From a virus, in the IMG/VR virus record IMGVR_UViG_3300049489_000249, positions 1 through 30,119 of that record: a stretch of DNA of 30,119 nt. One strand, given 5' to 3'. The position numbers were made by a program, and so were the translations under genes. The notes under the pieces were generated by a model, which worked only from the letters and a program-made list of their open reading frames with translations, ran no database searches and had not been told where the DNA came from. Below are positions 171 to 29,098 of the stretch, piece by piece (the stretch's first letter is position 1; every line of letters begins with the position of its first letter).

Positions 171-1874
171 CTAGAAAACCTCTGTAATGCGCGCATAGCC
201 ATTAGCTTCAACCCAATAGGCATGTACCGCTCCTGTATAACCATAAGGAACTTCATAATAGTCTCGTGATTTCATCTTAACAGTATAACTTGTAGAAGAT
301 GCTCCAGTTCCTAACTTCAAGAAGACGGCAGAAGTGCTGTCGTTATAGATAGCAGCTCCAGACCTTAACAGATTAAGATCAAGAAGCTCTGTATCTGCTA
401 CAGCAGAAGCTACATTGCTTACAGTAGATTCTGGCGGTCGGTCATTAACAGGATTGATCGTTTCTTTAATTGAATTTTCGATAGTTTCTATCCTGTTGAA
501 ATTAGAAAAATAAACAACATCAGCAGAAAGAGTAGAAGAACCTGTTACGACTCCAAAATTTCCAATACCTACCACAATCTGAACCTCATCATAAGGTCCA
601 ATGATATGACGGCTATGGGTTGCTAATTTAACTCCATCAACCCAAAGACTGTTTGTTGCTGCTGTTACTTCGATATAGTACTCGTGATAGTCGCTTGTAA
701 CCCCACTATCAGGAAGGGTTACTATCGTAGTCTCTTTATCGTCCGAATTAAAAGACGTAACCAAAGAAACTTTCGTATTATCCGTTCCGCTAAATTCTAA
801 AGCAGCTATCTTGTCTGATAAATGATAAGCAGTGTTCATAAAACCAACAGAAGAAACCTGGTTAGCGTATCTATTATCTATCTTAATTACAAACAAACCA
901 TTAAATGGAGGGTAGTCTGCTGGTCGAAGAATAGTAGAATGGCTTCCTGGTGTAGTGCCAGAAATTAATTCTGCTACTGAAGTACTGTAACCAACACTGC
1001 CGGTTCCGCCAGACTGATAAAACCAAGCGGCTCTGCTTGAAGCTCCAGTCCCAGGAGTGCCAAGGTAAGCTTGTTCAAGAATAAGTAGAGTATCAGACAT
1101 AACATCAGAAACAACAGTTAATGCTGCCTGTGGATCAGAGTCTAACTTAACATAGTCTCCAATCTTTATTTCTGAAAGAAAACTTGTAGAAACTCCAACA
1201 ACATAGACACTTGCTGAGAAAGTTAGAGTACCAGATAAAACGGTAGCAATTGCTCCATCAGTAAAGTCGTCTCTAAAAGATTGTTCATCTGTTAAGATTT
1301 GACCGCGAGTAATAAGATTTCCATCAAGATCTACCTTAAGAGAAGGCAACACTCCAACTTCTGTAAAGTTTAATGGATCTGGTGAAGAACTTGATGTTTG
1401 GCTCGCTAAAGGAAGAGTTCCTGCTTCTGTTAAAGAGCGAGGAAGAGCTTCAATTACTGGGCATAAAGTAGTTGCAAGCCTGAGATAAGTTGTTATGGCT
1501 GGAGAAATATTAGTAACTACAACTCGAACATAAGCTCCAACGACTTGTGTGGTTCTTCCGTTTCCTTGGCCGGGATAAAGAAGAAACGTGTCTGCTATAT
1601 CCCAATTTGAATTATCAGTGCTTTGCTGAATAGAGATAGATAAAATCTTATCAGCCTTACACATAACCTGAACAGCAGTAACACCAAAAGCTTCTTCAGA
1701 AGTACCAGTAAACGAAGCACCAGCAGCAAGGTTGGTCGTACTGCTATTTCCTGTAGAGACTTTTATATTCTGTGTAGAAGAAACTGCTAAAGCTTTTTGA
1801 GAATCAACATCTATTGAGCTTATAGCTTCGCCACTACTGTTATATAGGATTACGACTGGGCTGTCTGAACTCAT
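171..1874 (-). CDS. Fibre/decoration-like virion protein with a lectin-like middle (567 aa)
   Basis: This is a predicted beta-rich virion protein. Residues 1-150 resemble the Ser/Thr-rich N-terminal domain often seen in phage structural proteins. The middle (about 315-465) contains the pattern YHEYYIEVTAATNSLWVDGV, which looks like a LamG/concanavalin-type sandwich that could bind glycans. The C-terminus (about 505-567) has the common phage surface-domain pattern AIYNDSTSAVFLKLGTGASS followed by YYEVPYGYTGAVHAYW. Its ATG overlaps the TGA stop of the upstream IsrB gene (ATGA), with only a weak GGTGA ribosome site. That start context seems to be carried by a 9-bp repeat shared with the far side of the IsrB element (see 1875-1883). 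Virion location and glycan binding are inference. Confidence 0.7.
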   Translation of the reverse strand: MSSDSPVVILYNSSGEAISSIDVDSQKALAVSSTQNIKVSTGNSSTTNLAAGASFTGTSEEAFGVTAVQVMCKADKILSISIQQSTDNSNWDIADTFLLYPGQGNGRTTQVVGAYVRVVVTNISPAITTYLRLATTLCPVIEALPRSLTEAGTLPLASQTSSSSPDPLNFTEVGVLPSLKVDLDGNLITRGQILTDEQSFRDDFTDGAIATVLSGTLTFSASVYVVGVSTSFLSEIKIGDYVKLDSDPQAALTVVSDVMSDTLLILEQAYLGTPGTGASSRAAWFYQSGGTGSVGYSTSVAELISGTTPGSHSTILRPADYPPFNGLFVIKIDNRYANQVSSVGFMNTAYHLSDKIAALEFSGTDNTKVSLVTSFNSDDKETTIVTLPDSGVTSDYHEYYIEVTAATNSLWVDGVKLATHSRHIIGPYDEVQIVVGIGNFGVVTGSSTLSADVVYFSNFNRIETIENSIKETINPVNDRPPESTVSNVASAVADTELLDLNLLRSGAAIYNDSTSAVFLKLGTGASSTSYTVKMKSRDYYEVPYGYTGAVHAYWVEANGYARITEVF

Positions 1875-2902
1875 GAAATCACCGCTTTAGTAGAGTTTGT
1901 GTTTGGAAGAAAACTTGATTTCCATCTTAAGTTAAATAATATTTTACAGTCTTCTTTTTTAATCTTTTGAGATATTCTATTTCCAGTTTTTATGTCGTGC
2001 AATGATAGTTTGTCTTTCATTGCCCCTCCTATATAAGTCAATCCGTATTTAGTATGTTTAACCAAAGCGCCTCTATTTATACTAAAAGTTCTAGTCGTTC
2101 CATATTGTTTTCTAATTCCATCTTTTTTTGGATTAGTAACATGTAGTTGTCTTCTATGCCATTGAAATAACTCACATTTATTAATTCCAAAAAACGGTTC
2201 TATATTTCCAATAGTAAGTTCGCAAATACAATGAGAATCTACATTATGAGCATCCCAGGAATCTCTAAGCTTCTCAGAAGTCTTCTTGAAACCACGGTAG
2301 TCTCTTTGAGCTTTAGTTTCATATCCTTGAAACTTATATAAATCTAATTTTCTATTCTTAACTTCTTCTTCAAACCATTTCTTGCCAACTTCTAAAGGAC
2401 TAAAGTCTTTATTCCATTTCTTACAATTCTTCTTAGAAGTAGTTTTAACATCCTCTATAGAAACTGTAGTCAAAGGAATAACCTTCTTCCAAAAATCAAC
2501 AATCCTCAAATGGGCTCCCCATCTTGCTTTAGTTGAAGGTGGGAGTCCACCTATTGTTCTATTATACCTACATTTTCTATAAGGTGTATTTCTGTAACGG
2601 CGAGATTTTCTAAGACTTCTTCTAAACTCAAGACTTTTTTTAATCCAATTAGGGGTATTAAAGAGCTGATTACAAACTATACTGTTTTCAGTGGCGACTG
2701 TAATTCCAGTTCTTTTAGAACCAGGATCAATTCCTATCACTACGTCTTGATAGTTTCTTTCCGATGGTTCTTTCTGTAAAATAATACAAAAAATACCATT
2801 TTTCCAATAAGCTTTAGCTTCTTTACGTTCTATAAGCTTTCGTGCTCTCTTTTCAGAACAAGGCATTAATGGAATTTTCTTATTGTCTAGAACTGGTACC
2901 AT
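1871..2902 (-). CDS. isrB: IsrB-type RNA-guided RuvC nuclease (IscB family without HNH), 343 aa
   Basis: IsrB proteins use an omega RNA to direct a RuvC domain that nicks DNA. Motifs in order: a PLMP motif at residues 11-14, RuvC-I IGIDPGSKRTGITV with D59, an arginine-rich bridge helix at about 92-115, RuvC-II TTVSIEDV with E150, RuvC-III SWDAHNVDSHC with H219 and D222, and an IscB-like C-terminal target-recognition segment (RRQLHVTNPKK, then YGTTRTFSINRGALV). Only about 70 residues separate RuvC-II from RuvC-III, so the HNH domain that IscB carries there is absent and the frame is continuous. The length fits IsrB (about 350 aa). All acidic RuvC residues are present, so nickase activity is plausible. 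ATG at 2902 has AAGGAG about 13 bases upstream, inside a possible stem. The last four bases overlap the next gene. No transposase gene is nearby. Confidence 0.88.
   Translation of the reverse strand: MVPVLDNKKIPLMPCSEKRARKLIERKEAKAYWKNGIFCIILQKEPSERNYQDVVIGIDPGSKRTGITVATENSIVCNQLFNTPNWIKKSLEFRRSLRKSRRYRNTPYRKCRYNRTIGGLPPSTKARWGAHLRIVDFWKKVIPLTTVSIEDVKTTSKKNCKKWNKDFSPLEVGKKWFEEEVKNRKLDLYKFQGYETKAQRDYRGFKKTSEKLRDSWDAHNVDSHCICELTIGNIEPFFGINKCELFQWHRRQLHVTNPKKDGIRKQYGTTRTFSINRGALVKHTKYGLTYIGGAMKDKLSLHDIKTGNRISQKIKKEDCKILFNLRWKSSFLPNTNSTKAVIS
1875..1883. repeat. 9-bp direct repeat, left copy, at the IsrB element edge
   Basis: GAAATCACC on the plus strand. It encodes the last residues (VIS) of IsrB and supplies the ribosome-site region of the downstream gene. 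The identical copy is at 3133-3141, where it likewise encodes the terminal VIS of the upstream gene. Confidence 0.75.
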
Positions 2903-3132
2903 AATTGAGATTACTCTCCTTGTAAACTACAGCTTCGATACTGAGAGAGACATTGAATCAAGACTAGCTGAACATCCTGAATGTGTCATATTGCCTACCA
3001 CGGCCATCTCTCTAGTTGCCTTCAAGCGGGTATTGTTCCCCTTGGCTAATCTAGTTTCTTCTTGCCCTTGTGGGTTATTGCTGGTAAATGCTTTTCCTCA
3101 CAAGCCCAAGTGTTTAATCTTGGGTTATTTAC
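1875..3132 (-). mobile_element. IsrB-omega RNA element inserted between two fibre genes
   Basis: A unit of about 1,258 bp holds only the isrB gene and its predicted RNA. It separates the fibre-like genes at 3129-3647 and 171-1874. The same 9 bases flank it (1875-1883 and 3133-3141). Deleting one repeat plus the element joins the flanks so that the upstream protein still ends RVIS, its stop becomes TGA, and that stop overlaps the downstream ATG as ATGA with AAGGG seven bases ahead. Such a clean reconstruction argues for insertion into a formerly coupled gene pair. No transposase or IS200/IS605-like terminal hairpin was recognised, so it may depend on nick-stimulated recombination or a transposase in trans. 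Confidence 0.65.
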
Positions 3133-3152
3133 GAAATCACCCTTGTCCTTGA
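2903..3152 (-). ncRNA. Predicted omega (HEARO) RNA of IsrB, with its guide at the 5' end
   Basis: The bases between IsrB and the gene before it code for nothing but fold well. Reading the minus strand: CCCAAG/CTTGGG (3124-3119 with 3110-3105), CTTGTG/CACAAG (3104-3099 with 3072-3067), then a nested stem at 3054-3012 (CTAG, GCC, AAG, GGG paired with CCC, CTT, GGC, CTAG). A possible stem pairs 2950-2943 with 2918-2914 and would cover the IsrB ribosome site. In IscB/IsrB systems this RNA lies upstream of the ORF and its 5' guide comes from flanking DNA. By that rule the guide is TCAAGGACAAGGGTGATTTC (3152-3133), which is the 3' end of the upstream fibre gene plus intergenic DNA. Boundaries are estimates; no covariance search was possible. 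Confidence 0.68.
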
Positions 3153-3647
3153 TACTTCAAATGGACCAGAATAAGAAATAGTATCAGTTAATGTAGCTAT
3201 CAATACTTCACCGTCATCATATATAGTCCATTCGATTTCTGTTGGAAGAACACCAGTCCAAGTTATCGATTTTTGAACAATCTTCTTTTTGGTCAGGCCA
3301 GCATCAGTATACCAAGTAATAGCTGTAGGGAAAGCAGTGCCAGTAGTTTCTCTATATGCGCCACTTGCAAAACCTTCGCCCGGTCCATTATCGATAAAGT
3401 GAATTAACTGCCTTAGTGTTTTATGAGCAGGAATAGTTAAGCCATCAGAACCACTTGTCACCGCAAGCCATTCGCTTGACTCATAATCAATAAGCATCCA
3501 TAGAGTGTTATCATCTAATTGCCGGGCTAACTTACCTTCATCTGCTAAAAGAAAACCAGTAGCAGCTTCTCTTTCAGTTTGATCGGCATAAGTCCAGTTA
3601 TAGACTACGTGAACATCTCCTGTGGATAGATTAGTATGTAGTGCCAT
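3129..3647 (-). CDS. Small fibre-type virion protein (172 aa)
   Basis: Residues 15-65 contain YADQTEREAATGFLLADEGK followed by LARQLDDNTLWMLIDY. This recurrent module of phage fibre and surface proteins usually comes before a beta-structured region that ends in a tryptophan. The remainder is beta-rich and unassigned. ATG 3647 has GGAG six bases upstream, and the previous gene's stop lies three bases away, so the two are probably translationally coupled. It ends in RVIS immediately beside the IsrB element. In the reconstructed ancestral locus its stop would overlap the start of the 567-residue fibre protein, implying the two were made together. The exact virion position is unknown. Confidence 0.68.
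   Translation of the reverse strand: MALHTNLSTGDVHVVYNWTYADQTEREAATGFLLADEGKLARQLDDNTLWMLIDYESSEWLAVTSGSDGLTIPAHKTLRQLIHFIDNGPGEGFASGAYRETTGTAFPTAITWYTDAGLTKKKIVQKSITWTGVLPTEIEWTIYDDGEVLIATLTDTISYSGPFEVSRTRVIS
3133..3141. repeat. 9-bp direct repeat, right copy, at the IsrB element edge
   Basis: GAAATCACC on the plus strand, identical to 1875-1883. On the minus strand it forms the last nine bases of the predicted IsrB guide, the end nearest the target-adjacent motif. Confidence 0.75.
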
Positions 3648-18447: not shown

Positions 18448-21400
18448 CTAAAAGTTATCTCTCTTTGGTTTGTCGGACCTATAACCACTTCTCGATCTTC
18501 TCCTCTGAATAAACTCTGCTTGTCGTTGTTCTTCTTGATCCGTATCCCAACCAAGTCTATTTGTCTTAACGCCGCCCATAGGATCGCTTAGCTTACCAGG
18601 TTGCTGTCTGAATAACTGTTTTTCAAGGTCTGTCTTCTGAATCATTTCTCCATCAAGTCTTCGTTCTGTGGGCGCTGTTTTCTTTTCGTTCGAATAAACC
18701 AACTTACCCTGTCCGTCTGTTTCAGTAAGTCTTGGGTCCATCGCCGCGCCACAAACAACAACTGCTGGATTAATCTTATAAAGGTCGTCGAACTCTAAAT
18801 GGAAAGCAACTATAGCTAAGTTTAAAGCATCAAGCCTATGATCTCCTATTTTATCATCGGTCATACCATAGACGTTAACTCCTGATGGAGTGGTGCGAGC
18901 TATGATGTAATTTCTAAGTTGTTTGATTAGAGTAGTGTCCGAAGAACAGATTCTAATCTTTTCTTGCTCGAACAACCGAATACTTGCATTGACCATGAAT
19001 GGTTTAGCTGGTGCTCGATTTATCTGATGAGCAATAGGGTCTTTAACCTCAATAGAAGAACCAGAATCGTATTTCTTAAGAATATCTAATAACCGAGCAG
19101 TATCGTGATCTCCACCATGTCTGCGCTCATCAAAAGCCTTTTTCCTTATTAATTCCGCATTCGTACTGCCGTTTCCAGCGTCGATATAGATAAACGCTGG
19201 CTTCCACTTCTTGTTAAGCTCAAGAAGTTTAGAAACGCCGACTAACTGAGTAAACTCAGATCTCTCAACATGGACAGTTTCTGCTACTTGGAACAAGCCA
19301 GTTAGGGTGTTGTATCCCAATACCGCTATCTCTGTTCCATACTTCTCGTTCCAGTCAGTGCCAATACAGTATCTCCAAGTAGGAGTAGGTCTTTGCTGTT
19401 CGTAATTGTAATTAGTAATCGCCTTATCAATATAAGCTGTTTTGTAAACGTTTGTTTCAGAAGCCGTCCAGTCGGCTAAGTACTCTCTTGTCCACTGATC
19501 TAAGGTGTAGTTGTTTCGTTCTTTCTCAACCTGCTCAAACCAAGGTAATACTTTATACGTATGGTGAAATTCTTTATAGTTTGGATTCTCCTCACACATA
19601 GAAAAGAATGGTGTTTTTGCGCCCGTAGGAGTAGAAAATCCAATAAATTCGGTACGTTCGCTTGTTTGCAAAAGTGGAAGAACAGCTCCAACAAGAGCTT
19701 CTTGGTCGATATAATCAAGTTCTTCAGTCATGAGTAAATCGGCGTCCTGACCTCGGATGTTAACGCCTTCTGATTTACCACGAGTACCAATAGCATAACC
19801 TCTAAGTCTTGAACCATTCTTAAGTTTTAGTTCATGATATGGATTTGAAACAGACCTTGAGATAGAACTGCTAAGGTCTGGATTTAGCCTGATAAAAGAC
19901 TTTACGCGATTGAAGATTTCTTCAACATGGCCCTTGAGTGGCGCAGCAAGAACAATTTTCAAATCTGACTGCGTGAACATTCGATAGCAAATTACAATGG
20001 CAACGGAATCAGTATTGTGAGAAACAATATTATCAGAAATAAAAGTTTTTGTTTCTGGAACACTAAGATCGAAAGTCTCTTGATCCTCTATTTGTTCTAT
20101 TTTGGTAATTTTTTCCCAAGCAAAACCATTATCTGATGAAAGCCATTTCAGATACTCATCGTTCAAATTTTCTGCAAAGACAGAAAGTTTTTCTTTCGTT
20201 GGGGAATATATCATAGAATAAGAAACTCTTGTGCCATCTTCTTTAAGCCCAAGACTTCTTTTCGACTTATTGATTTTCTTTCTTTCTGTTTCTATGTAGT
20301 TATAAATCTGTTTTGGCGTAAAACCATATTCAGACTTCGTAGAGCCTTTTTGATTAATCTTTTCTATCACTTTTAAAAGAGCTTTCTTTTTACCAAGAAT
20401 AGGAATTTCTTTATTAAAAGTATAGATATCTTCTTTTGAGCTTAAAACTAAAGTCCAATTGTCTCTATAACCTTCTTTATACTTAACTCTTTTATAAGAC
20501 TTATTTGAGAAAATACCGAGCCTTAGCAAAAGATACTGCACGTCTTTTATTAATTGCTCAGAAGCACTGCTAACTCCAACCTCTGTGGATTCTATTGGAT
20601 GAGAAGAATCATGTGTTTTGCTTTCAATAGAAAACCAACCATCTGTGTCCCAATATCCAGCAAGAAAGTTTTTCACTGCGCTAAGCGAAGCAGTCATTAC
20701 TTCTTTTGGAACACTTTTAAATCTTGCTGTTTTTCTTAAGTTATACTTATCTAAAAGTTCGTTAACTTTATTTCTATATTTGCCTTTAATAGGAGCGAAG
20801 CCTTCTATAGAATTGTCTTTGATAACAATACTATAGTCGCAACCTCCAATATAACTTAGTTTACAATTGTATAAGGATAAAATCTCCTCAATATCTTCCA
20901 GGCATTCTTTAGTTTCATTTATAAACCTTGAGGAGTGTTTGTAGTTTAACCCCCCGTCGCCGGTTAGATATCCTAATAGTTTGGCTTCTTTGTCAGAAAT
21001 ATTAGAAATATTAAAATTAACATCTCTATAAGAAGAGACTGTTAAGATAGAGTCTCCAATTCGAAGCTCCGATAATTCTCTCCAGCCAAGAGTTCCATCC
21101 TCTTTCATTGTTAAAAACGGATGGTTTAAAGTAGCGTCTATCTCTTTGCCATACATGGTAATAAGCTTAAATACTTGCTTTGTCCCGTTGCTAAAAATAG
21201 AATATTCTTTTGTGGTTTTTATTTTTCCATCGTTCTCATCAAAAGTTAATATTTCTGGTTTGTCTTCTGCACCAAGAAGTTCTTTTACAGGTATTAAGCC
21301 ATCAACTGTATTAATTCTTGCAGTTGCAGCTATGCACTTGCCAGACCTTCTGCTGATACGCAAGACTTTTTTATTTGAAGAACATTTTAAAATCGGGACT

Positions 21401-21720
21401 TGATACTCGCGAGCAATCCAAGGATTTCCATCTGGTAATGTTAGGTGTTTGGCCGCGAACTTAACAACATCATTAACTGCTTCAATCTCTTCAATTTCGT
21501 CTTTAGAATAAATGTTTCTAAAACTTGGATCGATGATAGATTTCTTAATACCCTTACAGTTAATTAAGAACTTACCTTCGGCTTTAACCCCGTCCTGATC
21601 TACGAATTTTTCATATTTTCTTAATTGATTACGAACGCATTCATGACAGATAGGATCTACCTCGTCTACATCGAAAGGTAGCTTTATCTTTCTAAGGTCT
21701 GATAAGTTGTCATCTTGCAT
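18448..21720 (-). CDS. terL: Terminase large subunit interrupted by an intein (1,090 aa precursor)
   Basis: TerL powers DNA packaging and cuts the concatemer. Walker A SRRSGK (123-128) is split from its next residue T570 by the intein. Walker B is LLMTEE (662-667), with Glu where Asp is usual. The coupling motif GFSTPTG is at 694-700. The RNase H-like nuclease acids appear in GTDW (D789), YIDAG (D847) and GDHRLDAL (D960, D964). Excision would leave about 649 residues, normal for TerL. CHEC near residues 25-28 and C55 could bind metal at the N-terminus. ATG 21720 has AGG six bases ahead, with the previous stop close by. No convincing small terminase gene is visible. Confidence 0.92.
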   Translation of the reverse strand: MQDDNLSDLRKIKLPFDVDEVDPICHECVRNQLRKYEKFVDQDGVKAEGKFLINCKGIKKSIIDPSFRNIYSKDEIEEIEAVNDVVKFAAKHLTLPDGNPWIAREYQVPILKCSSNKKVLRISRRSGKCIAATARINTVDGLIPVKELLGAEDKPEILTFDENDGKIKTTKEYSIFSNGTKQVFKLITMYGKEIDATLNHPFLTMKEDGTLGWRELSELRIGDSILTVSSYRDVNFNISNISDKEAKLLGYLTGDGGLNYKHSSRFINETKECLEDIEEILSLYNCKLSYIGGCDYSIVIKDNSIEGFAPIKGKYRNKVNELLDKYNLRKTARFKSVPKEVMTASLSAVKNFLAGYWDTDGWFSIESKTHDSSHPIESTEVGVSSASEQLIKDVQYLLLRLGIFSNKSYKRVKYKEGYRDNWTLVLSSKEDIYTFNKEIPILGKKKALLKVIEKINQKGSTKSEYGFTPKQIYNYIETERKKINKSKRSLGLKEDGTRVSYSMIYSPTKEKLSVFAENLNDEYLKWLSSDNGFAWEKITKIEQIEDQETFDLSVPETKTFISDNIVSHNTDSVAIVICYRMFTQSDLKIVLAAPLKGHVEEIFNRVKSFIRLNPDLSSSISRSVSNPYHELKLKNGSRLRGYAIGTRGKSEGVNIRGQDADLLMTEELDYIDQEALVGAVLPLLQTSERTEFIGFSTPTGAKTPFFSMCEENPNYKEFHHTYKVLPWFEQVEKERNNYTLDQWTREYLADWTASETNVYKTAYIDKAITNYNYEQQRPTPTWRYCIGTDWNEKYGTEIAVLGYNTLTGLFQVAETVHVERSEFTQLVGVSKLLELNKKWKPAFIYIDAGNGSTNAELIRKKAFDERRHGGDHDTARLLDILKKYDSGSSIEVKDPIAHQINRAPAKPFMVNASIRLFEQEKIRICSSDTTLIKQLRNYIIARTTPSGVNVYGMTDDKIGDHRLDALNLAIVAFHLEFDDLYKINPAVVVCGAAMDPRLTETDGQGKLVYSNEKKTAPTERRLDGEMIQKTDLEKQLFRQQPGKLSDPMGGVKTNRLGWDTDQEEQRQAEFIQRRRSRSGYRSDKPKRDNF
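20014..21336 (-). other. Intein with LAGLIDADG homing endonuclease inside terL (441 aa)
   Basis: The protein intron runs from C129 to N569. Block A starts CIAATARINTVDGLIPV. Block B has TLNHPFL (T197, H200). Two LAGLIDADG helices are present: LLGYLTGDGGL (258-268) and FLAGYWDTDGW (362-372). Splicing block G is SHN with H568, N569 and +1 Thr570. All residues needed for splicing and for homing appear intact. The insertion point is inside the Walker A P-loop (SGK|T), a site that only tolerates an intein if splicing restores the ATPase. The codons at both junctions (TGC at 21336-21334, AAT at 20016-20014) agree with the assignment. Confidence 0.93.
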
Positions 21721-23034: not shown

Positions 23035-26000
23035 TTATTGTTTTCCACCATAGCGTGTATGGCCTTGAGAAGCAAACTTGAGTTTCTTTAAGCCCGCGCC
23101 GACAGAAGATTTTGACAACTTATGAAAGTTCATTTGCCTTTTAAGTCTTGCCATATCTATCATTTGTCTTAAAGCAGGAGGTTTTGTTTGTGCTTGGGCA
23201 AAAGGGTCTGTAAAGTCTACCGTCTTTGTAGAAAAAGTCAACAAGTCGTCTGTTAGTCTTGTGTTTATTGCAGAATGCATCTCTTGTGTGCTTTCTGCAA
23301 TAGCACTCCTTGTTTTTTCTGCTTGTCTTGCACTTCCAAAATCTACCCAAGAGAATCGCTTAGACTGAGCCTCATACATGATGTTTCCATAATGAATATC
23401 TGGGTTCACAACTCCTTCTTTTGCAGCTCTTAAGGCTTCTTTTCTCATTACTCTTTTTATGTTTTTAGGGACTTCTCCACCTTGCTCAATTATCTCTGCA
23501 ACACTTTTCCCAGGCATGAGTTCCATAAACATAGAATCTGTAGCTTTGTCATAACCATATGGAGAAGGAGATATTCCTTTCTCTACTTTTGAAAGCATAG
23601 AGAATTCTGATCTTAAAGCTTCTGTTCTTTCTTCATAAGAAGATAAAACAAATCTATCTTTCTCTGCTTCTCTCGATAAAGGAACTTTCTTAATATATCT
23701 AAACTTCTTTCCTTTTATAGTTGTTTCCATTAAAGAAGTAGTTCCGAAATCGCCAGAACTAATCTCCTTGATCTCTTTTCCTAAAGATAAAGCCGATTGA
23801 AACTCGTCTGATTCGCGAAAAGATTTATAAGCTATTTCTTTATCTACACCTTTAATTGCTTTTGTGGCAATAACTCTTAATCTATCGAGACCAGAACCAA
23901 ATGGAGAGTTCTTCTTGATAATATCCGAACCCATACCGTTTGGACCAGCATTAGGATGCAGTCCTTCTACTACGTTATGTGCATCATCTCTACCAGAAAA
24001 TGAATTTACTGAGAGCTCTTTCAACATTTCAGAAGAAAACGATTTACTTCTTGGTAAAGTAGCAGGAGTTTTATTTTCCGATCCAATAGAACTTAGAGTC
24101 TCTTTTGCAGAACCTTTTAAATCGAATAGTTTTTTCCCGCCAAAATGTTCTATTGACTCATTAGTTGTTTGAATTAAGTCTTTTACAAGTTCTACTCCTC
24201 TTGATCTTTTCTCTGGAGTCATCTCTATTGTGTCTGAGACTTTTATAAGTTCAGAAAAGATATCATTAATACCAGCAACACGTTCTTTGCCAAGGATAAC
24301 ACCCTTAGAAGAACCTTTTAGCGACTGACCATAAATCTTAGTAAGATCGGTCATTTCCTGAAATAAATCTACAGGAATTAATTCTTTTGTCGTTGTAAGT
24401 TGAGAAGAAGCTTCTGCAAGAAAAGACTTAATATTGTAGTCAAAGGTCTTTGAGCTTTCAAATCTATTCGACATACCCCAGTCAATAACACCAATTTTAG
24501 ATCCTTCTGGCGTATTGACTCGCATAATATTCTCACTATGAAGATCTGTATGAGAGACTCTTTTAGCATGTGCTTTTTTTATAAAGCCAAAAAGATCAGA
24601 AGATTCAGTTTTGGATAAACGACCAGACTTATCGAAGATTTCTTGAAGCGTTTCTCCCTCAAACTTTTCCATCAAAAGTGCATTTTCACCAAGACCAAAG
24701 TTCTCACCAGAACCATAGAGGCTTGGAGCGTTTTCCGAACCTAACTTAGATAAAGCATTTCTTTCTGCTGCTTTTGTTTGCGCTAAAGTTTTTTGGCTGC
24801 TTCTTTCAGCTATTGGGAGAACTCCTTCTCTCCATTTATTATATTCATCTGGAGACGACTTTAGAACTGCCTTATAGTCGTCATCAGTAAGTTCAAATGC
24901 TCTTTTTACAAATTCATCATTTAGTTCATTTGTTCTATATTGCTTAGAAACAAAGTCAAACTCTTCTGGTAGGTCTGCGACCCCATGCTTAAAGACAACT
25001 CTATGTGAATATACGTCGGCCGTTAAACCAGAACCTATCTTAGTACCGCCTTTTTCAATAGCAGCTCTCATAGAAGTTGTAAAATCTTCGTTCTTTAGAA
25101 GGAGATTAAAGGCATCTTCTGGGTCTGCATCTTTATACAGTCCTTTGGCTACTGCTCTTAGGATATCCCAAGAAGAACCGAAGTCTGTATTAAAATGTCT
25201 TACATGTTGAGCAAAGTTATAGTGGTCTAAGCCTTCAACCTGCAGGTTTTCGTCTTTCGCCCAAAGAGAACTCTTTACTCTGCTATAAGCTTGTTTAACT
25301 TGATAATCTGATTCGCCAGATAAAACGTTAAATGTTAATCTACCTTTATGTTTAGACCGTTCTTGGCGATATCTTTGATAATAATCTAATGACCAGATAC
25401 CCTGTCTCTTCTTAATAGCTTCTCGTTCTGCTTTCTTGAAAGCATATTCGTCTGTTAGGACGTTCTGATAAACAAGAGCAGAGGCTAATCCTTCTTCTGC
25501 CAATTGAAGGTTTAAGGGTTTTGAGGAACCTTCAGCATAAGCAAGACCAACGAATCGACCTTTAGTGCGGTCTTTGGCATCAGTGCTTATGACAACTCTA
25601 AGATTACCGTTTCTCAACCGCGCCTCTAAAGCAGCTCTGCTTGCTTTACCCTGAGGCATTCCAAGCTCGCCATCAGCGTGTGCTACTTCAGGAGCGTCAA
25701 TACCTGTTAAACGAACAGAGATTGGTTTGCGCGAAGAGAACATTCCTGTCTTCTTTGGTTGAAGAGAGACAGTATCTGCGTCCAAGAACTCAAAAGTAAA
25801 CTTACTCATGTCTACTTCTGCAGTCTTAGAGGTAAGAGGAATTAGGTCTCCGTTAGAGAAAGTAGAAGAACCAGTAGAGTCAAAGTCTTTCTTTTTCGCG
25901 CCAGCAGACCCAGACATTAAATCTAATTGTGTATCTGGATCGTTTCCTCTAAAGAATTCAGCAGAAGTATCTGGAACTGATATCCCATAGGCTTCATTGA

Positions 26001-26745
26001 GAGTCTTCTCACTGATAGCATTTGGAAGAGCTAAAGACCTACCACTTTGTTGCGACAAGGAACCAAGAGCAAGCGCAGCTATACCAAGCGCTCCCGCACC
26101 AGCCATCAGCTTTACGCCTTCTTTGGTAGTTGGCGAAGCGACGGTTTTCCTTGCAGCCTTATTAAAAATATCTTTTATTTCAGAGACGCGAGTAGTTAAC
26201 TGTTCAGCTTTTTGAGACTTAATAACCCTAAAAGACGATTCTTCTATATTCTGAGGAGCAATAACTCTTGCTTCGGGAAGAGGAGGTACGTCGTCTAAAA
26301 TGCCTTGAGGAACATCCTTAAAGACAGGTGGTTCTTTTAACTGTCTATATGGAAACTGGATCTTGCCTTCAAGCAACTCCCCCATGTCTTCCGAAGGAAG
26401 ATGAGTAGAGACTGACTTTAATCCCCAGCTATACTTTGAATGCCAATCCTGGTAAAGACTGCTCTTGTAGAGACTTGCAATTCTCTTAGTGGAGATTTTT
26501 AAAGGATCTATCTTCTTCTGTCTAAGAAATTCACCAAAGGTTATTGATTCAGGCGAACCAATAATAGTGGTGTTGTGATAGGCAAAGAGTTCTTTAGCAT
26601 ACTTAGCTCTACGCTTTTCTGCCTCTTCGTAGATTCTATTCTTTTCGGGACCTGGGAGAGAGAAGAGTTCTTCTAAACTAAGATCTTTTTCCTTGAGGAG
26701 ATCAGCAAGTATTCCTTCCCATGCTTCTTTTTGAGATCTGAACAA
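23035..26745 (-). CDS. Thermonuclease plus tandem kinase-like domain protein (1,236 aa)
   Basis: Residues 1-200 are helical and charged. About 205-235 (LMAGAGALGIAALALGSL) may cross a membrane. Residues 315-456 form a staphylococcal-nuclease domain: DADTV (322-326), RLTGIDAPE with R345, D350 and E353, and GRFVGLAYAEG with R397. These match the catalytic Arg, Asp, Glu and Arg of SNase. Kinase-like domain 1 (about 565-765) has GSGLTADVY, HTDLHSEN (D734, N739) and DWG (D755). Domain 2 (about 995-1145) has SGDFGTTS, a YIKK lysine, NPDIHYGN (D1116, N1121) and DFG (D1135), so both catalytic loops look intact and resemble APH/RIO-type kinases. The start is TTG 26745 with AGGAG about 11 bases before; TAG lies three codons upstream. 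Size and position suggest an ejected or head-internal protein. Confidence 0.85.
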   Translation of the reverse strand: MFRSQKEAWEGILADLLKEKDLSLEELFSLPGPEKNRIYEEAEKRRAKYAKELFAYHNTTIIGSPESITFGEFLRQKKIDPLKISTKRIASLYKSSLYQDWHSKYSWGLKSVSTHLPSEDMGELLEGKIQFPYRQLKEPPVFKDVPQGILDDVPPLPEARVIAPQNIEESSFRVIKSQKAEQLTTRVSEIKDIFNKAARKTVASPTTKEGVKLMAGAGALGIAALALGSLSQQSGRSLALPNAISEKTLNEAYGISVPDTSAEFFRGNDPDTQLDLMSGSAGAKKKDFDSTGSSTFSNGDLIPLTSKTAEVDMSKFTFEFLDADTVSLQPKKTGMFSSRKPISVRLTGIDAPEVAHADGELGMPQGKASRAALEARLRNGNLRVVISTDAKDRTKGRFVGLAYAEGSSKPLNLQLAEEGLASALVYQNVLTDEYAFKKAEREAIKKRQGIWSLDYYQRYRQERSKHKGRLTFNVLSGESDYQVKQAYSRVKSSLWAKDENLQVEGLDHYNFAQHVRHFNTDFGSSWDILRAVAKGLYKDADPEDAFNLLLKNEDFTTSMRAAIEKGGTKIGSGLTADVYSHRVVFKHGVADLPEEFDFVSKQYRTNELNDEFVKRAFELTDDDYKAVLKSSPDEYNKWREGVLPIAERSSQKTLAQTKAAERNALSKLGSENAPSLYGSGENFGLGENALLMEKFEGETLQEIFDKSGRLSKTESSDLFGFIKKAHAKRVSHTDLHSENIMRVNTPEGSKIGVIDWGMSNRFESSKTFDYNIKSFLAEASSQLTTTKELIPVDLFQEMTDLTKIYGQSLKGSSKGVILGKERVAGINDIFSELIKVSDTIEMTPEKRSRGVELVKDLIQTTNESIEHFGGKKLFDLKGSAKETLSSIGSENKTPATLPRSKSFSSEMLKELSVNSFSGRDDAHNVVEGLHPNAGPNGMGSDIIKKNSPFGSGLDRLRVIATKAIKGVDKEIAYKSFRESDEFQSALSLGKEIKEISSGDFGTTSLMETTIKGKKFRYIKKVPLSREAEKDRFVLSSYEERTEALRSEFSMLSKVEKGISPSPYGYDKATDSMFMELMPGKSVAEIIEQGGEVPKNIKRVMRKEALRAAKEGVVNPDIHYGNIMYEAQSKRFSWVDFGSARQAEKTRSAIAESTQEMHSAINTRLTDDLLTFSTKTVDFTDPFAQAQTKPPALRQMIDMARLKRQMNFHKLSKSSVGAGLKKLKFASQGHTRYGGKQ

Positions 26746-28684: not shown

Positions 28685-29098
28685 TTAGGTAAGTTTCTTT
28701 AGGTCTTCTGCTTTAAGAAAGTAAGTTCGCTCTTCGCTCCTATTTGCTACAGGAATAAGAACAGTAAGAAGGCCGTCTTCAAAAGATACAGAGAGTTTGG
28801 ATAGATCAAGATCTCTACTAACAGGGATCTCGTGTTTAAAAGAAGATTTAAACTTCTTCATTACGTTATCTCTATGAAGATTAGAACCCTCTATATATAA
28901 AACGTTGCGTTCTACATATACATTCAAGTCCTCTAACTTGAATCCAGCAAGAGCAAACTGAAGTTTAGCGTCTGAGTAAGACAACCCTTCGTCTTTACTC
29001 ACTACCGCTTTCGTAGCTGGGGGTTTAATCTTATCGTCCCAATTGTAGAACCAAGAACTAAAGAGATCGTCGAGAGATAAAAGTGTGTTGAATGTCAT
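28685..29098 (-). CDS. hsp20: Hsp20 family small heat-shock chaperone (137 aa)
   Basis: Small heat-shock proteins hold unfolded proteins without ATP. The alpha-crystallin domain spans about residues 38-122: LQFALAGFKLEDLNVYVERN, VLYIEGS, the helix-to-strand region FKHEIPVSRDLDLSKLSVSF and the signature FEDGLLTVLIP (106-116). The N-terminal arm is short (about 35 residues) and the C-terminal I-x-I motif is not evident, so the oligomer may be simple. AGGAGG lies five bases before ATG 29098. It has its own canonical promoter (29172-29200) and a structured leader, so it may be expressed apart from the late genes. Phages encode such proteins probably to assist virion-protein folding; cyanophages are known examples. 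Confidence 0.88.
   Translation of the reverse strand: MTFNTLLSLDDLFSSWFYNWDDKIKPPATKAVVSKDEGLSYSDAKLQFALAGFKLEDLNVYVERNVLYIEGSNLHRDNVMKKFKSSFKHEIPVSRDLDLSKLSVSFEDGLLTVLIPVANRSEERTYFLKAEDLKKLT

What the first reader, a model, noticed from the sequence alone, without database searches (positions are those of the whole stretch)
1871..3152. Phage IsrB-omega RNA element that appears aimed at its own empty insertion site
Seen: an IsrB-type gene (PLMP, intact RuvC D59/E150/D222, no HNH), about 230 structured bases upstream of it, and a 9-bp direct repeat at both edges. Joining the edges gives TCAAGGACAAGGGTGATTTC followed by ATGA. Known: in IscB/IsrB loci the guide is the flanking DNA at the RNA's 5' end and the target-adjacent motif lies 3' of the target; I recall NTGA for the Desulfovirgula IsrB. 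Inference: the RNA would guide nicking of alleles lacking the element, a homing-like drive in which the motif is the overlapping stop/start ATGA of two fibre genes. Here IsrB would act as an RNA-guided counterpart of an intron or intein endonuclease.
Basis: partly seen in the sequence, partly recalled or inferred. Interest (0 to 1): 0.93.

Follow-up and report, generated by a model that had tools for sequence, protein, structure and literature searches.

The report
Phage IsrB nickase targeting its empty site
A phage carries a small mobile gene unit, an RNA-guided DNA-nicking protein (IsrB) with its guide RNA, inserted exactly in front of a neighbouring gene's start codon, and its guide appears to match the same spot in copies of the genome that lack the unit, so it could help copy itself back in.

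Summary
Window 1875-3132 (minus strand) is an IsrB/omega-RNA element. IsrB is confirmed by Pfam RRXRR and PDB 8DMB. The omega RNA is confirmed by a covariance model built without the window (E=1.2e-8). The 9-bp repeat is real. Relatives fix the ends: left |GTCA(N)TAACCC-hairpin (window GTAAATAACCC), right |ATGA, no target duplication. Two cyanobacterial relatives have natural empty alleles that read straight across the joint. The window's own empty site was not found.

Nicking and homing are untested. RNA-guided homing and gene drive are already proposed for TnpB, and an IsrB element entering a phage at ATGA has been seen in the laboratory.

New in the surroundings: the family sits directly before ATGA start codons. 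One 327-kb phage holds five IsrB copies plus three RNA-only mini-elements, several at stop/start overlaps. In Microcystis phage MaMV-DL01 the IsrB gene is replaced in place by an HNH endonuclease. The window's element lacks the usual right-end hairpin; its right end carries an unexplained 9-nt seed match to its own guide.

The parts
1871..2902 (-). IsrB gene (PLMP, RuvC, no HNH), 343 aa; its stop codon TGA lies inside the target's ATGA
1875..3132 (-). Whole element, 1258 bp, by the boundary rule of relatives (left |GTCA..TAACCC, right |ATGA)
2903..3132 (-). omega RNA scaffold region, left-end hairpin CCCAAG...CTTGGG included
2920..3018 (-). omega RNA core found by covariance model R1, built without the window
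   Evidence: 40.4 bits, E=1.2e-8
3122..3132 (-). Left end GTAAATAACCC (family GTCAATAACCC); its TAA ends the upstream gene as RVIS
3133..3152 (-). Predicted guide, TCAAGGACAAGGGTGATTTC (flank; end of the upstream gene)
   Evidence: rule and PMC9581776
3133..3141 (-). Left copy of the 9-bp repeat GGTGATTTC (flank, TAM-proximal end of the guide)
1875..1883 (-). Right copy of the 9-bp repeat, within the element's right end
1871..1874 (-). ATGA: predicted target-adjacent motif, IsrB stop (TGA) and start codon of the next gene (ATG)
3129..3647 (-). Upstream gene, 172 aa, no family match; its last codons form the guide
171..1874 (-). Downstream gene, 567 aa, weak tail-fibre match; starts at the ATGA

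Best explanation
The element is an IsrB-type OMEGA unit that sits, without target duplication, between the 3' end of one phage gene and the ATG of the next. Its omega RNA takes its guide from the flanking DNA at the left end (3152-3133). With IsrB it should recognise the same flank followed by ATGA, a site that exists in full only in DNA lacking the element. There it would nick one strand about 8-11 nt before ATGA, so that repair from an element-bearing copy (a sister genome after excision, or a co-infecting phage) puts the element back. Shown here: the protein family, the omega RNA, the boundaries, the contiguity of flank and ATGA in empty alleles of relatives, and multiple copies at different sites in a related phage. 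Inferred: expression, nicking, and repair-driven copying. Because the right-end hairpin has decayed here, retention or homing at this one site seems likelier than further transposition.
For: IsrB identity and catalytic residues. Omega RNA by a model that excludes the window, with covariation. Five IsrB copies in one 327-kb phage define the ends, and the window groups with them at 100/100 support. Empty alleles read across the joint in relatives of L053 (98% identity) and L060 (92% and 84%). Joined flanks of copies A, B and C restore the upstream frame into a TGA that overlaps the next ATG. An ORF starts at [AG]TGA just downstream in 56 of 89 loci, against 13% of control windows. IsrB copies are under purifying selection, dN/dS about 0.15-0.22. 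Right-end hairpin absent in the window, clear in most relatives tested. No Y1 transposase in LR745208 or two MaMV phages that hold such elements. HNH endonuclease replaces IsrB inside the same element ends in MaMV-DL01. Published DtIsrB motif NTGA and nick site.
Against: No empty allele of the window's own site was found. IsrB makes a nick, not a double-strand break, and I found no report of nick-driven homing by IsrB. The right end of the occupied allele matches the guide over the 9 motif-proximal bases plus ATGA, so the occupied allele may not be fully safe from its own complex. The window is a 30-kb fragment, so a transposase elsewhere in its genome cannot be excluded.
Confidence: 0.6

Rival explanations
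1. An ordinary IS200/IS605-type passenger, moved in trans by a Y1 transposase, with IsrB serving only transposon retention after excision; no spread between co-infecting phages.
For: G002 with five copies encodes a Y1 transposase. Left and right ends with hairpins are conserved in relatives. Retention is the published proposal for TnpB.
Against: The transposase of G002 sits beside a TnpB with different ends. None was found in LR745208 or two MaMV phages. The window's right-end hairpin is lost.
Confidence: 0.45
2. Inter-phage exclusion: the complex nicks rival phage genomes lacking the element and lowers their yield, rather than converting them.
For: Same target logic. An HNH endonuclease takes the same place in MaMV-DL01.
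Against: No competition data; one nick may be repaired without loss.
Confidence: 0.2
3. A decaying, inactive remnant: the gene is still open but neither transposes nor nicks.
For: Right-end hairpin gone; long branch of the window protein.
Against: Complete ORF with RuvC residues; omega RNA pairs kept; the left end differs from the family so that it stops the upstream gene at once.
Confidence: 0.15
4. The left copy of the 9-bp repeat is a leftover of an earlier right end, so the true empty site is ...GGACAAG+ATGA, and the guide partly matches element DNA rather than the target.
For: The right copy resembles right ends of relatives, e.g. L112 GCGCTGATATTTCG|ATGA. Removing the 9 bp also leaves an in-frame stop (AGA TGA; frame arithmetic). 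Repeated left ends occur at the MaMV site.
Against: In relatives with an empty allele everything before the left end is native flank. AAGGG followed by 7 nt and ATG makes a good ribosome-binding site for the downstream gene.
Confidence: 0.25

Closest known systems
IsrB OMEGA system (DtIsrB, PDB 8DMB; PMC9581776)
   Same: PLMP and RuvC without HNH, about 350 aa; structured omega RNA directly upstream; ATGA fits the NTGA motif
   Different: In a phage structural module; right-end hairpin lost; IsrB stop codon supplied by the target motif; activity untested
TnpB homing / gene drive (PMC8612924, PMC11870625)
   Same: Guide copied from the flank; target is the element-free site; repair restores the element
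   Different: IsrB nicks rather than making a double-strand break; different protein family and reversed guide/motif sides (own knowledge)
Host IsrB element that entered Microcystis phage Mic1 at ATGA (PMC11237433)
   Same: IsrB with about 207 bp upstream and 59 bp downstream inserted at ATGA in a phage
   Different: That insertion broke a phage tnpB gene; here the junction leaves both neighbouring genes intact
HEARO RNA and ORF (Rfam RF02033; PMC9755519)
   Same: RNA-plus-RRXRR-ORF architecture; insertion before ATGA/GTGA (recalled from the 2009 description, not held here)
   Different: No Rfam match in the window; no HNH domain
Phage homing endonuclease genes (free-standing, intron or intein HNH/LAGLIDADG)
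   Same: Predicted to cut element-free alleles at the insertion site; in MaMV-DL01 an HNH gene occupies the IsrB place
   Different: Target recognition by RNA rather than protein; not inside an intron or intein

Membership tests
IsrB (OMEGA) | PLMP domain plus split RuvC, no HNH | tested here: met
IsrB (OMEGA) | Structured omega RNA directly upstream of the ORF | tested here: met
   (model without window, E=1.2e-8); covariation
IsrB (OMEGA) | Guide is the flank at the RNA 5' end and the motif lies 3' of the target in the empty site | tested here: inconclusive
   Contiguity met for two cellular relatives with natural empty alleles; no empty allele found for the window's own site
IsrB (OMEGA) | RNA-guided nicking of the non-target strand at an NTGA motif | not testable with these tools
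   ATGA is present; biochemistry needed
IS200/IS605-type transposon | Y1 transposase in the element or genome | tested here: inconclusive
   None in the 30-kb window, which is a fragment
IS200/IS605-type transposon | Subterminal hairpins at both ends, no target duplication | tested here: not met
   Left hairpin kept; right hairpin not above shuffles; no duplication in relatives
HEARO RNA (RF02033) | Match to the Rfam covariance model | tested here: not met
Homing element | Copies itself into element-free alleles after cleavage | not testable with these tools
   Genetic cross needed; indirect support only
Homing element | Insertion interrupts its own recognition site | tested here: inconclusive
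   Guide and ATGA are separated by the element, but the right junction still matches 9 seed bases plus ATGA

The most novel reading that the evidence does not exclude
Phages carry a class of junction-inserting, RNA-guided homing nickases whose target motif is the start codon (often a stop/start overlap) of the next gene. They spread within one phage as IsrB elements plus RNA-only satellites served in trans, and their place can be taken by a protein homing endonuclease.
Probability: 0.35. Interest if true: 0.8.

Novelty: new member of a known kind. Interest (0 to 1): 0.55.

Why it matters
If IsrB elements home in phages, RNA guidance and protein homing endonucleases are interchangeable answers to the same selfish problem. 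That would make the natural role of the Cas9 ancestor lineage testable in phage crosses. The start-codon insertion rule explains how such elements spread without breaking genes. The RNA-only satellites are a step from one guide per nuclease towards many guides per nuclease.

Tried and rejected
Window's own empty site: relatives of the upstream gene, of the downstream gene, and a degenerate joined-site pattern in viral contigs (23 matches, none related to the window) all gave nothing. L004, a relative with 62% capsid identity, has a different gene order at this place.

Target duplication as a general rule: rejected, because copies A-E and the cyanobacterial empty alleles show none.

Empty alleles for the G002 copies: L159 has a 56% rIIB relative that ends at an ATGA overlapping another gene, but its C-terminus differs, so it is suggestive only. 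Copy A's downstream gene has no relative that would show the site.

The claim that every G002 copy sits in a stop/start overlap: rejected. D sits before no gene, and E has no open upstream frame. The frame test for A, B, C and mini-element 1 needs one base more than for the window and mini-element 3, so it is not proof on its own.

The idea that the 9-bp repeat reflects the published 8-11 nt nick offset was kept only as speculation.

Full report
What is there. The window is a 30,119-base virus record with head, portal, terminase and tail genes on the minus strand. At 1871-2902(-) lies a 343-aa protein with Pfam RRXRR (E=4.6e-38) and a match to the solved IsrB of Desulfovirgula, 8dmb (E=1.1e-26). 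D59, E150 and D222 are invariant in the alignment with two relatives, and no HNH domain is found. The 9-bp repeat GGTGATTTC occurs only twice in the window, at 1875-1883 and 3133-3141.

The RNA. Rfam, HEARO included, gives nothing, and single-sequence folding is only mildly better than shuffles. An alignment of 22 upstream regions from phages, cyanobacteria, Poribacteria and Chloroflexota shows a shared fold. It has 88.9% paired cells against 65.4% in shuffles and a covariation score of 0.668 against 0.242. A covariance model of the core built from 19 relatives without the window finds a single place in the window, 3018-2920(-), E=1.2e-8.

The ends. A related 327-kb phage (G002) carries five IsrB copies, which form a 100/100 clade with the window. 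Aligned, they share GTCAATAACCC... at the left and end just before ATGA at the right, with unrelated flanks. The same left end recurs across the family; the window has GTAAATAACCC. For two cyanobacterial elements, L053 and L060, relatives carry the uninterrupted site. The joined flanks align across the joint without a gap there, at 98% (L053) and 92% and 84% (L060). So the family inserts without target duplication, between flank and ATGA. This is inference from the family rule: no relative of the window's own site was found.

The site. In 56 of 89 loci an ORF of at least 50 codons starts at [AG]TGA within 150 nt of the IsrB end, against 130 of 988 control windows. In Ma-LMM01 the annotated gene gp170 starts at the ATGA. 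For L053, L055 and L058 the joined flank puts a GGAG- or AAGG-type ribosome-binding site in front of that start. In G002 the joined flanks of copies A, B and C give an upstream gene ending in TGA that overlaps the next ATG. The window has the same arrangement: the element's own TAA ends the upstream gene as RVIS, and IsrB stops at the TGA of the target's ATGA. Copies A and B and LR745208 also use the target's TGA as the IsrB stop.

Mobility and partners. G002 also has three mini-elements of about 465 bp with left end, omega RNA and right end but no IsrB, each with its own flank and hence its own guide. They would need IsrB in trans. G002 encodes a Y1 transposase beside a TnpB, with other ends. 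LR745208 and two MaMV phages have such elements but no Y1 transposase. The window's right-end hairpin is not above shuffles, whereas it is clear in most relatives. IsrB copies in G002 show dN/dS of about 0.15-0.22.

A swap. Several related Microcystis phage records hold IsrB at one site. In MaMV-DL01 the two ends of that element are kept, but the middle is replaced by a protein with HNH_3 and helix-turn-helix domains. The record of DL02 shows the same two-piece match. This is the best indirect sign that IsrB does the job of a homing endonuclease. It may also be a chance invasion by an endonuclease gene.

Mechanism. [quoted passage not shown] Karvelis et al. proposed homing for TnpB by analogy to group I introns (PMC8612924), and a TnpB gene drive in plasmids is reported (PMC11870625). 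A host IsrB element was seen to enter phage Mic1 at ATGA (PMC11237433). From these, RNA-guided nicking of element-free copies followed by repair from an element-bearing copy is the likeliest role. Nicking, RNA ends and homing are untested here.

Open points. The right end of the occupied allele matches the guide at 9 of 9 motif-proximal bases and has ATGA. Whether the complex nicks its own right end is unknown. The identity of the two 9-mers at the exact boundaries is unlikely by chance and fits neither a target duplication nor simple insertion. It may be a remnant of an earlier right end, or a right end remade by repair.

Verdict. Real, and well explained as a member of the IsrB family. The homing-drive claim is plausible but unproven and not new in principle.

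Noticed in passing
G002 (IMGVR_UViG_3300023213_000432), 73379-73840, 75938-76390, 99326-99790: Three mini-elements with left end, omega RNA and right end but no IsrB gene, each with a different predicted guide: possible RNA-only satellites using IsrB in trans.
   Followed up: partly
L175 1611-2189 (Microcystis phage MaMV-DL01): An HTH-HNH-HTH protein replaces the middle of the IsrB element (omega RNA 3' half and most of IsrB) while both element ends remain; sister phages keep IsrB.
   Followed up: partly
L176, L177, L178 (MaMV phages), upstream of IsrB: Tandem repeats of the element's left end (GTCACTAACCCCGCCCTAA...) in front of the omega RNA, differing in number between sister phages; perhaps traces of repeated insertion or slippage.
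   Followed up: no
window 18448-21720 (-): The large terminase subunit carries an intein with a LAGLIDADG endonuclease domain, so this phage fragment holds a second homing-type element.
   Followed up: partly
window 23035-26745 (-): A 1236-aa protein joins a staphylococcal-nuclease-like domain with a protein-kinase and an ABC1-type kinase-like domain.
   Followed up: no
window 28685-29098 (-): Hsp20 small heat-shock protein gene (Pfam HSP20, E=4.7e-10).
   Followed up: no
window 1871-1888 (-): The element's own right junction matches the predicted guide with 3 mismatches in 14 and carries the ATGA motif: possible self-nicking or self-binding.
   Followed up: partly
L218 and L213 (G002): The same phage also carries a Y1 transposase-TnpB pair and a second TnpB with a TNB domain.
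   Followed up: no
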